The position numbers were made by a program, and so were the translations under genes. From Persephonella sp. IF05-L8 (lineage in GTDB: Bacteria; Aquificota; Aquificia; Aquificales; Hydrogenothermaceae), in NCBI RefSeq assembly GCF_000703045.1, contig NZ_JNLJ01000001.1:835501-899500 (forward strand): DNA of 64,000 nucleotides. The letters are read 5' to 3'. Each line of letters starts with the position of its first letter. The first letter of the stretch is position 1. Shown here one piece after another: positions 1,112 to 3,911 of this stretch. Below the pieces are notes generated by a model. The model was not told the DNA's origin and searched no databases. It worked only from the letters and a program-made list of their open reading frames with translations.

Positions 1112-1426
1112 ATGAGAAAAATATTCCTTTTACTTTTTGCTTTTTATTCAAGTACTTTTGCCTTTCCTTTTGACCATATGAGTGGAGGGCAAAATCAACA
1201 AATGTTAGGCTGCATAGGAGATTGTGCAGCCTGTCATTCATTAACCCCCATAGAAGCTCAGGCAATCTTAGGGCAAAAGTTTGACGTTAAAAAAATACTT
1301 AAAATAGATATAAAAGATGGTTTCTTTGAAATAGAATATGAGACTTCCAAAGGAAAAAAGGAGAAGATAAATTTATTTTTTAGCAAGGATAAAGCCTGCA
1401 AAGAAATTATAAATCTTAATGAGTAG
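1112..1426 (+). CDS. Small exported CxxCH protein, possibly DsbC-like N-terminal domain
   Basis: The ATG at 1112 gives a 104-residue protein with a clear signal peptide (MRKIFLLLFAFYSSTFA). A longer TTG start at 1049 would put a non-signal-like stretch in front and is less likely. The mature protein carries GDCAACHSLT, which could be a c-type heme site (CxxCH) or a redox-active thiol pair. It is followed by a beta-rich segment like the small dimerisation domain of periplasmic disulfide isomerases. There is no catalytic thioredoxin domain. It lies 65 bp after the reductase gene and overlaps the next gene by 8 bp, so co-expression is likely. Function is not assigned. Confidence 0.6.
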   Translation: MRKIFLLLFAFYSSTFAFPFDHMSGGQNQQMLGCIGDCAACHSLTPIEAQAILGQKFDVKKILKIDIKDGFFEIEYETSKGKKEKINLFFSKDKACKEIINLNE

Positions 1427-1877
1427 GGTAAGAGGCATGATGGATATTCTCTCTTTTATTAAAAAATCTATAATTAACAGAATTCTTTTTATCACTATTT
1501 CTGGTGCAGTTGTTGTTTCTGTATTGTCTTTTTTTATTTTTTACTTTATTTTTGCGAAAGAGGGAACTTATCACTTTCTTGAAAGTATCCTGAACTATGC
1601 AAAAACTCACCCGTTTACATTTGCGTTGTTCTTAGGCTTTCTAACATTTCAGGCAGCTCTAATTCCTATAATTATGACATACTTCCTTCTGAAAAAAGAA
1701 GTGATAGACCCATTACAGGATATATCTGAAAGAATGGAAAAGATATCTATGGGTGAGCTTGAACAGGAAATTCCTGTTGAAAGGGAAGATGAGATAGGAC
1801 AACTTCAAGAAGCATTTGATAGGATGAGAATGAGCCTAAAAGTTATAATTGAAAAACTGGAAAATGAGGAACTATGA
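1419..1877 (+). CDS. Two-TM HAMP-domain protein without an output domain
   Basis: Up to 152 residues. Two hydrophobic segments (about residues 19-46 and 66-91) flank a short periplasmic loop. A HAMP domain follows (about 92-145), with the typical VIDPLQDISERMEKIS helix and DEIGQLQEAFDRM second helix. The protein ends right after HAMP, so no kinase, cyclase or methyl-accepting domain is attached. ATGs at 1437 and 1440 are alternative starts and have a better purine-rich stretch (aagagg) upstream. It overlaps the previous gene by 8 bp. It may be a scaffold or a truncated sensor; no partner is encoded next to it. Confidence 0.75.
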   Translation: MSRVRGMMDILSFIKKSIINRILFITISGAVVVSVLSFFIFYFIFAKEGTYHFLESILNYAKTHPFTFALFLGFLTFQAALIPIIMTYFLLKKEVIDPLQDISERMEKISMGELEQEIPVEREDEIGQLQEAFDRMRMSLKVIIEKLENEEL

Positions 1878-1914
1878 TAAAAATTTAATCATTATGCTGG
1901 TTAAAATTTAACCA
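1875..1914. promoter_or_regulatory. Tandem 17-bp palindromes, candidate activator (UAS) sites
   Basis: TGGTTAAA-A-TTTAACCA (1898-1914) is a perfect 8+1+8 palindrome. TGATAAAAATTTAATCA (1875-1891) is a degenerate copy that matches it at 14 of 17 positions. Their centres are 23 bp apart, about two helical turns. They lie roughly 75-115 bp before the predicted start from the sigma-54-like promoter at 1965-1981. This is the normal arrangement for dimer sites of an NtrC-family activator, and one is encoded at 2520-3911. Confidence 0.5.
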
Positions 1915-1964: not shown

Positions 1965-1981
1965 TTGGCACACCTTTTGAA
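1965..1981 (+). promoter_or_regulatory. Candidate sigma-54 (-24/-12) promoter
   Basis: TTGGCACACCTTTTGAA matches the sigma-54 consensus with an invariant GG at 1967-1968, exactly 10 bp of spacing, then GA at 1979-1980 where the consensus has GC. The predicted transcription start is about 1991. It would drive the exported protein at 2022 and probably the NtrC-family activator at 2520. Confidence 0.55.
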
Positions 1982-1982
1982 T

Positions 1983-2017
1983 ATAACCTCCTGAAAAATT
2001 ATTTTTCAGGAGGTTAT
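1983..2017 (+). promoter_or_regulatory. 16-bp perfect inverted repeat enclosing the Shine-Dalgarno sequence
   Basis: Arms 1983-1998 and 2002-2017 are perfectly complementary with a 3-nt loop. The right arm holds the strong ribosome-binding site (aggaggt, 2008-2014) of the gene starting at 2022. In an RNA begun upstream the site would be buried. In an RNA begun at the predicted sigma-54 start (about 1991) half of the left arm is missing. It is not followed by a T-run, so it is not a simple terminator. Confidence 0.6.
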
Positions 2018-2021
2018 TCAG

Positions 2022-2471
2022 ATGAAGAAAATACTTTTTACCATTTTAATTTTAATCTTTGGGGCTGTCCCATCTTTTGCGGAAGAAAAACTTCTTATTA
2101 TCTATCTTTACAACAAAAACAGTCCTTATCTTAAAGAAATTGAAAACAAGATAATAAAAAATAAGTATCTTGCAAAAAGAATTCAAAAAAATTTTAACTT
2201 CAAAAAAATTCAAATCGGAACACAGCAGGCTGAGGATTTTGTTAAAAAGTTTAAGATTAAAGAAAAAGAAGGGGTATACTTTATAGATTTTTCAGCTGGA
2301 GAAGTTCTTTATAGCTTAACAGACCTTTCAAAACCATGCAGATGTGCAAATCTTATAAATTATTTTTCCCGTAAACTCCATAAAAAGAATATTGACCCAG
2401 ATAGATATTTGTATTTAGCTGAAAAGTGGGGAGCTTATACCAGAAAAGTAGAAAAAGAGTATTTATTTTAA
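2022..2471 (+). CDS. Exported protein, possibly thioredoxin-fold
   Basis: 149 residues with a signal peptide (cleavage predicted after PSFA). The mature part begins LLIIYLYNKNSPYLKEIE, a beta-alpha start reminiscent of thioredoxin-fold proteins. It later has GVYFIDFSAGEVLYS and a CRC pair (SKPCRCANL), not the CxxC of a normal thioredoxin. It has its own sigma-54-like promoter and a sequestered ribosome-binding site, and it precedes an NtrC-family activator gene by 48 bp. This suggests tightly conditional expression. I do not recognise the family. Confidence 0.65.
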   Translation: MKKILFTILILIFGAVPSFAEEKLLIIYLYNKNSPYLKEIENKIIKNKYLAKRIQKNFNFKKIQIGTQQAEDFVKKFKIKEKEGVYFIDFSAGEVLYSLTDLSKPCRCANLINYFSRKLHKKNIDPDRYLYLAEKWGAYTRKVEKEYLF

Positions 2472-2491
2472 GGGGATTGTAAAATCCCCTT
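2470..2491 (+). terminator. Weak terminator/attenuator hairpin
   Basis: AAGGGGAT (2470-2477) pairs with ATCCCCTT (2484-2491) around a 6-nt loop. It is followed by tagatatatattttt, not a clean T-run. It lies between the exported protein gene and the activator gene and could reduce but not block read-through. Confidence 0.5.
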
Positions 2492-2519
2492 TAGATATAT
2501 ATTTTTAGAATAAAATTTT

Positions 2520-3911
2520 ATGAGGGTAGTACTTTTGCCAGAAAAAGTTTATATCCTTTCAAAAAATGCAAATACGATAGAAAGAATAAGTAAACACTTT
2601 CAAAATATAACCAGACTAAAAAACCCAAAAGATATAGAAAAAGTAAAAAACGGAGTAATTTTTGTAGATATAAGAGATTTTGGTATTGTTCCTGTCCCTG
2701 TTCAAAAAGGAATATTTCCGATAGCTCTTATTGATAAAAATCTATCCCGCACTAACCTGGCAGCTTTTATTATGAGAGTTATGAGTAAAAATTATTTTGA
2801 ATACATAGAATATCCCTTCTCAGAAACAGAGATAAGAAATTTAAAAGAGAAACTGACAATAAAAGAAAAGAATGAAGAGAAAATTATTAGCTTTAAAAGC
2901 TCTTCTGCATCAAATGGATTGATATGCCAGTATCTGTGCTCAATAATAGGCTCATCCCCACAACTAAAAGAAATATGTAAGTTGGCAGGTGAGGTTGCCC
3001 CTACAGATATTCCTGTTCTTATCACAGGAGAGACAGGAACAGGGAAAGAGCTTCTTGCAAAGGGAATATGGAAGCTGAGCAAAAGGGCTGATAAACCTTT
3101 TATAGCAATAAACTGTGCAGCAATCCCTGAAAACCTTATTGAATCCGAACTTTTCGGCTATGAAAAGGGGGCTTTCACAGGAGCTGATAAAGCAAAGCCC
3201 GGAAAATTTGAGATTGCCGATGGGGGAACAATATTCTTAGATGAGGTGGGAGAACTTCCCCTCTCTGCACAATCAAAACTCCTCAGATTTCTTCAGGAAG
3301 GAACATTTTACAGGTTAGGTGGAACAAAAGAGATAAAGGTTGATGTCAGGATTATGGCAGCAACAAACAGAAACCTTGAGAAAATGGTAAAAGAAGGTAA
3401 ATTCAGGGAAGACCTTTATTACCGTTTAAATTTCGTTCATATAAAACTGCCTCCTCTGAGGGAAAGGAAGGAAGATATCCCGTATATAGTTGAATGTATA
3501 GTGAATAAATACAATAAAAAACTCAATAAGAGTATTACAGGTGCATCGGTTGAGTATATAAGGAAATTACAAAATCAAAGATGGGAAGGAAATATAAGGG
3601 AACTGGAAAATGTGGTTGTTCGTTCTATGATACTTTGTAGAAACAATATTTTAAGTTTACCTGATATTGATTTTCTTGATACTAAATCAGATGAAACTAT
3701 AGAAGAATTACCTGAAGTTGAAGAGTTTATAAAAAAACAGGTTGTTTCTGCTATAGAAAACAATAGATTGAAGGAGTTAGAAGAAGTTATAGAAAAATCT
3801 ATATTAAAAGCTGTCCTTGAATATACAGGAAATAATCAGGTAAAAACGGCAAATCTTTTGGGTATAAACAGAGCAACACTCAGAAAGAAAATAAAAAAAT
3901 ATTCTCTATAG
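2520..3911 (+). CDS. NtrC-family sigma-54-dependent transcriptional activator
   Basis: 463 residues. Residues 1-140 are a divergent N-terminal sensory domain with no clear phospho-acceptor Asp pocket, resembling degenerate receiver domains such as that of FleQ. The AAA+ domain (about 145-375) carries the Walker A motif GETGTGKE near residue 170 and the sigma-54-contacting loop GAFTGA near 217. The C-terminus is a Fis-type helix-turn-helix ([20 protein letters not shown]). It is therefore a true activator, probably controlled by something other than phosphorylation. Its position behind a sigma-54-like promoter with tandem palindromes suggests it regulates its own operon, which is inference. 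Confidence 0.9.

What the first reader, a model, noticed from the sequence alone, without database searches (positions are those of the whole stretch)
1983..2017. Ribosome-binding site locked in a 16-bp hairpin that spans the predicted start site
The perfect inverted repeat encloses the strong aggaggt of the 2022 gene. If transcription starts at the sigma-54 start (about 1991), half of the left arm is not in the RNA and the ribosome site is free. If RNA comes from upstream read-through, the full hairpin forms and blocks it. Start-site choice would then decide translation. Alternatives are an RNA thermometer, or a DNA operator palindrome over the start.
Basis: partly seen in the sequence, partly recalled or inferred. 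Interest (0 to 1): 0.7.

Follow-up and report, generated by a model that had tools for sequence, protein, structure and literature searches.

The report
Start-site hairpin insulating a σ54 gene
In heat-loving Persephonella bacteria, a small gene next to the sulfate-assimilation operon has its ribosome-binding site locked in a hairpin that can form only if the RNA starts upstream of the gene's own predicted promoter start, so it is probably translated from its own promoter but not from neighbouring read-through, a trick known in phage T4.

Summary
In detail: 1983-2017 is a perfect 17-bp inverted repeat (16-bp RNA hairpin, 3-nt loop) around the SD GGAGG (2009-2013) of the gene at 2022. It is the only perfect repeat with arms of 11 or more in the window; shuffled windows reach 12 at most. 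A σ54 promoter (TGGCAC-N5-TTG, 1966-1979) puts the start at about 1991-1992, inside the left arm. Nine orthologous loci (eight Persephonella-genus genomes, one sister genus) keep the UAS pair, σ54 promoter, promoter-to-arm spacing, upstream co-directional genes and hairpin. The arms covary, drift through G·U wobbles, and have spacers of 12-17 nt, which fits selection on RNA pairing rather than a DNA operator. Twelve σ54 leaders from the divergent genes of the same apparent regulon lack the switch. Folding keeps the long RNA closed at 70-80 °C, against a thermometer. Best reading: an insulator that blocks translation from sat–sir–HAMP read-through and leaves it to the gene's own σ54 start. Phage T4 e/soc/49/I-TevI work this way; this is a chromosomal σ54 variant. 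Start sites and translation are unmeasured; a start 5 nt upstream would break the model.

The parts
1112..1426 (+). small protein with N-terminal signal-like segment, upstream co-directional gene (sat-sir operon)
   Evidence: ORF; conserved in synteny
1419..1877 (+). HAMP-domain membrane protein, last gene of the upstream co-directional run; source of presumed read-through
   Evidence: Pfam HAMP E 2.3e-13; upstream of the gene in all nine loci
1875..1891 (.). UAS-like site 1 (TGATAAAAATTTAATCA), overlaps the HAMP stop codon
   Evidence: 14/17 to consensus; tandem with site 2 in nine loci
1898..1914 (.). UAS-like site 2 (TGGTTAAAATTTAACCA), presumed activator site
   Evidence: top PWM hit in window, 25.2 bits; similar sites in the trpD2-sat intergenic region
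1966..1979 (+). sigma-54 promoter TGGCAC-N5-TTG; predicted start about 1991-1992
   Evidence: TGGCAC and TTG invariant in 9 loci; rpoN present
1983..2017 (+). RNA hairpin; left arm 1983-1999 mostly upstream of the predicted start, right arm 2001-2017 holds the SD
2009..2013 (+). Shine-Dalgarno GGAGG
   Evidence: sequence, 8 nt before ATG; invariant in 9 loci
2022..2471 (+). trxL: thioredoxin-like exported protein (149 aa), regulated gene; no CXXC at the usual place, conserved C-x-C near the C-terminus
   Evidence: weak Pfam Thioredoxin_2 E 0.03; profile match to 2lst thioredoxin E 1.5e-4; alignment
2520..3911 (+). sigma-54 activator (AAA+, Fis-type HTH), presumed activator of the regulon
   Evidence: Sigma54_activat E 2.7e-75, HTH_8 4.6e-14; next to trxL in all loci

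Best explanation
The palindrome is the DNA image of an RNA hairpin that insulates translation of trxL (2022) from upstream read-through. RNA that enters from the sat-sir-HAMP genes carries both arms; CCUCC pairs with GGAGG and the ribosome site is closed. RNA started at the gene's own sigma-54 promoter begins at the 3' end of CCTCC, lacks most of the left arm and leaves the SD mostly open. So the protein is made essentially from its own activator-driven promoter. Shown here by computation: hairpin, promoter motif, conservation, covariation, absence of the switch in same-regulon control leaders. Inferred: the exact start, the existence of read-through RNA, and the effect on translation.
For: Nine loci keep sigma-54 promoter, promoter-to-arm spacing and hairpin. 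Named arm pairs: 90.7% of cells pair versus 41-53% for partners slid by 1-3 columns; three pairs change on both sides; G-U changes at five other pair positions or cells; 0 of 500 shuffles reach the covariation score. In the leader alone at 60-70 C the SD is paired 0.99-1.0 in the long RNA and mostly open in the short one, in all nine; with 60 nt of coding sequence the contrast is smaller but present in all nine at 70 C (0.99-1.0 versus 0.35-0.69). No terminator-like site lies between the HAMP stop and the hairpin in eight of nine loci, and the ninth hit is the hairpin itself. HAMP translation stops about 105 nt before the hairpin, so ribosomes on HAMP would not melt it. Same-regulon divergent sat/sir and trpD2-like leaders have no switch, 0 of 12. 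The mechanism has an experimental precedent in T4 gene e (PMC3014915).
Against: No RNA or protein data. Start position is predicted from the motif; if RNA starts 5 nt upstream the SD is closed in the sigma-54 RNA too (0.90-0.99 paired). At 37 C with coding sequence included, the short RNA also hides the SD in most species. The upstream operon has matches to the same UAS, so its read-through would appear together with the gene's own RNA, which makes the benefit of insulation less obvious. The nine loci are related by descent, so the covariation rests on few independent events.
Confidence: 0.63

Rival explanations
1. RNA thermometer: the hairpin is in the main transcript and melts with heat to free the SD.
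For: SD-sequestering hairpin in a thermophile; if the start were a few nt upstream the hairpin would be in the sigma-54 RNA.
Against: Predicted SD pairing stays 0.96-1.0 up to 80 C in all nine (energies extrapolated). Left arm lies upstream of the predicted start at constant spacing from the promoter in eight of nine. Predicted stability varies widely (-2.9 to -6.3 kcal/mol at 80 C).
Confidence: 0.08
2. DNA operator palindrome over the start, bound by a dimeric repressor or activator.
For: Near-perfect DNA symmetry in the window's copy; overlaps the predicted start, where a repressor would act.
Against: Five loci have a G-T in the arms that breaks DNA symmetry but keeps RNA pairing; the spacer between CCTCC and GGAGG varies 12-17 nt by single steps, up to half a helical turn. 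The activator's presumed sites are a different palindrome far upstream.
Confidence: 0.1
3. The hairpin is in all RNAs and simply keeps trxL translation low, or is opened by another factor (RNA-binding protein, small RNA or metabolite).
For: True if the start is 5 nt or more upstream. Factor-opened SD hairpins are common in bacteria (general knowledge).
Against: Would not explain why the left arm sits at a fixed place just upstream of the predicted start; loop sequence and length are not conserved apart from an A-run.
Confidence: 0.15
4. The hairpin is a weak terminator or processing site for upstream RNA.
For: It is the first strong structure after the HAMP gene; some operons end in such stems.
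Against: No T-run follows in eight of nine loci; the ninth has 4 T in 8. The stem is shorter than typical RNase III substrates (general knowledge).
Confidence: 0.04

Closest known systems
Phage T4 late genes e, soc, 49 and I-TevI (PMC3014915)
   Same: Long upstream-started RNA folds a stem that hides the SD or AUG; RNA from a promoter next to the ribosome site lacks the 5' strand of the stem and is translated.
   Different: Phage genes with T4 late promoters, separating early from late expression; here a bacterial chromosomal gene with a sigma-54 promoter, in an apparent sulfate-assimilation regulon whose upstream operon has matches to the same activator site.
IS10 and IS50 transposase genes, protected from read-through (from memory, not checked in a paper)
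   Same: Terminal inverted repeat folds in read-through RNA and hides the transposase ribosome site; RNA from the element's own promoter lacks the left arm.
   Different: Mobile elements; here no transposase or element end was seen at the site and the arms serve no transposition role.
RNA thermometers of the SD-hairpin kind (general knowledge)
   Same: SD paired in a leader hairpin.
   Different: Here the pairing arm lies upstream of the predicted start and predicted pairing persists at 80 C.

Membership tests
T4-type start-site hairpin switch (works like) | SD is paired with a 5' arm in RNA that starts upstream | tested here: met
   Long leaders fold with SD paired 0.99-1.0 in all nine loci at 37-70 C.
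T4-type start-site hairpin switch (works like) | A promoter next to the gene starts RNA inside or after the 5' arm | tested here: inconclusive
   Conserved sigma-54 motif predicts a start at the 3' end of CCTCC; start not mapped.
T4-type start-site hairpin switch (works like) | Pairing is under selection | tested here: met
   90.7% paired versus 41-53% slid; covariation above all 500 shuffles.
T4-type start-site hairpin switch (works like) | Upstream-started RNA exists and is poorly translated; short RNA well translated | not testable with these tools
   Needs RNA mapping and reporters. No terminator found between the genes.
Sigma-54-dependent gene | TGGCAC-N5-TTGC promoter, RpoN, and activator with upstream sites | tested here: met
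   TGGCAC and TTG invariant in nine loci, -12 C replaced by A or T in most; RpoN; activator gene adjacent and tandem UAS-like sites.
RNA thermometer | Hairpin melts near the growth temperature | tested here: not met
   Predicted SD pairing 0.96-1.0 at 80 C; extrapolated energies, so a prediction only.
DNA operator palindrome | Symmetric half-sites at fixed spacing kept in relatives | tested here: not met
   Spacer 12-17 nt, G-T pairs in arms.
Intrinsic terminator | Stem followed by a T-run | tested here: not met
   Not called in the window; one weak case of nine.

The most novel reading that the evidence does not exclude
Start-site hairpins are a recurrent way in Aquificota to insulate sigma-54 genes that sit behind co-directional genes: independent cases at trxL in Persephonella, at fliA in two other genera, and at a lipoprotein gene behind an activator gene.
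Probability: 0.25. Interest if true: 0.65.

Novelty: new variant of a known kind. Interest (0 to 1): 0.5.

Why it matters
If true, a device described for phage T4 is used by a bacterial chromosome to make one gene depend only on its own sigma-54 promoter even though it sits behind an operon with no terminator. It would show that operon maps alone can mislead: read-through RNA covers the gene but does not express it. It also offers a compact, testable two-state leader that works at 70 C.

Tried and rejected
General sigma-54 feature: of 125 sigma-54 leaders pasted from the phylum list, 4.8% showed a long/short contrast above 0.5 and 0.8% above 0.8, the same as shuffles (6.2%, 0.8%); so it is not general. 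That list was cut by the tool, so it is a sample. Counting CCTCC..GGAGG pairs genome-wide gave no excess over the reversed pattern. The hairpin-selected cases in other genera were picked by the pattern, so they are leads only; glnB in G087, fccB-like in G107 and the oxidoreductase in G073 are weak or within chance. fliA in Persephonella has no sigma-54 leader, so it gives no help there. Same-species genome G061 and complete genomes G001 and G006 lack a close copy of the activator, so they add no leader. Paper searches found no sigma-54 precedent in the held library, which is weak evidence because many journals are missing.

Full report
What is there. The window comes from a Persephonella-like Aquificota genome (named relatives; window placed at G000:C1:835501-899500). 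Positions 1983-2017 are a perfect 17-bp inverted repeat with one base between the arms. As RNA it folds into 16 bp with a 3-nt loop, -20.4 kcal/mol, z -7.6. No other perfect repeat with arms of 11 or more and loop up to 12 exists in the window, and 60 dinucleotide-preserving shuffles of the window gave 12 at most. The right arm holds GGAGG (2009-2013), 8 nt before ATG 2022.

Surroundings. Upstream and co-directional are ATP sulfurylase (sat), a NirA/sulfite-reductase-like protein with a TusA domain, a small exported protein and a HAMP protein; divergent from sat are a TrpD-like protein, CysH and a TauE-like permease. Downstream is a sigma-54 activator (AAA+ plus Fis-type HTH). The gene itself encodes a 149-aa exported thioredoxin-like protein (weak Pfam, profile match to 2lst at E 1.5e-4), here called trxL. 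This looks like an assimilatory sulfate-reduction regulon. The order sir-small-HAMP-trxL-activator is kept in all loci that reach that far.

Promoter. TGGCAC (1966-1971) and TTG (1977-1979) fit a sigma-54 promoter, with A instead of C at -12. Counting from -12 places the start at about 1991-1992, at the end of CCTCC (1987-1991). Tandem 17-bp sites TGRTTAAAWTTTAACCA, 20-23 bp apart, lie about 120-155 nt before the start codon in the nine loci; in the window they are at 1875-1891 and 1898-1914, the two best scores of a PWM trained on the other loci. Similar sites lie between trpD2 and sat, so both transcripts probably answer to one activator. That is inference from motifs.

Conservation. Nine loci (L001-L008, L015) keep the promoter, the constant spacing from TTG to CCTCC (one locus has one extra base), and the hairpin. 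On the MAFFT alignment with 12 named pairs, 90.7% of cells pair; partners slid by 1-3 columns give 41-53%. Three pairs change on both sides (one is G-C, A-U and U-A in different loci; one is A-U, U-A and G-U; one is G-C and A-U). Covariation exceeded all 500 shuffles. Limits: the sequences are related, the structure was read from one of them, and the right arm is held by the SD, so most one-sided changes are in the left arm. They are nevertheless nearly all to G-U, not to mismatches. The spacer between arms runs from 12 to 17 nt. Together this favours RNA pairing over a DNA-bound dimer.

Two RNAs. With leader alone the SD is fully paired in the long RNA and mostly open in the short one from 60 to 80 C, in all nine. 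With 60 nt of coding sequence the contrast at 70 C is 0.99-1.0 versus 0.35-0.69, and at 37 C it is small for most species. These scripts took the base at -1 as the first of the short RNA; starting two bases later gives the same values. Starting 5 nt upstream closes the SD (0.90-0.99). So the model stands or falls with the start site. Energies above 37 C are extrapolations.

Control. In the same genomes, sigma-54 leaders of sat or sir and of the trpD2-like gene, which diverge from each other and so have no co-directional gene behind them, show no contrast (0 of 12, largest difference 0.21). No terminator-like site lies between HAMP and trxL apart from one weak call on the hairpin itself.

How it probably works. 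Read-through RNA carries the full hairpin and is closed; the gene's own RNA lacks the left arm and is open. T4 gene e is the tested precedent: the longer transcripts form the inhibitory structure, reducing lysozyme synthesis about 100-fold, and late transcripts lack the 5' part (PMC3014915). What the gene gains is not known. One guess is that the weak -12 element of trxL (TTGA) sets a low level that read-through from the stronger sat promoter would override.

Is it wider? Not as a general sigma-54 feature: a phylum sample behaved like shuffles. Some leads remain: fliA in G024, G030 and G013, and a lipoprotein gene in G023 that starts just after an activator gene, have strong hairpins at the same place relative to the sigma-54 start. 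They were found with a pattern that demanded CTCC and GGAG (except G030), so chance is not excluded.

Verdict. Real, conserved, most likely an RNA switch by start-site choice; a chromosomal sigma-54 variant of a known phage device.

Noticed in passing
window 1875-1914 and L049:6480-6520: Tandem palindromes TGRTTAAAWTTTAACCA before trxL and between trpD2 and sat suggest one sigma-54 activator (gene at 2520) for a sulfate-assimilation regulon in Persephonella; no paper on it was found.
   Followed up: partly
L129, L130, L134 (fliA in G024, G030, G013): fliA behind a sigma-54 promoter with a start-site hairpin over the SD; arms differ between genomes. In Persephonella fliA has no such promoter.
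   Followed up: partly
L089 (G023 lipoprotein): Sigma-54 promoter a few bases after an activator gene, with a stable hairpin (-12.3 kcal/mol at 60 C) over the SD of a lipoprotein gene.
   Followed up: partly
L170, L171, L172 upstream of position 1501: Related lipoprotein genes in another genus have AACCTCCT..AGGAGGTT over the SD but no sigma-54 motif; instead a shared TTAACAGTTAGGTAAC lies just before the left arm. Promoter type unknown.
   Followed up: no
window 2022-2471: Thioredoxin-like exported protein without CXXC at the usual place; an invariant PC[RK]CANLINYFSR segment near the C-terminus. Function unknown.
   Followed up: partly
window 2472-2493: Hairpin AAGGGGATTGTAAAATCCCCTT between trxL and the activator gene, with few T after it; may separate the two genes. 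Conservation not checked.
   Followed up: no
L049:938-3789: Three adjacent ankyrin-repeat proteins on the minus strand next to the TauE-CysH genes.
   Followed up: no
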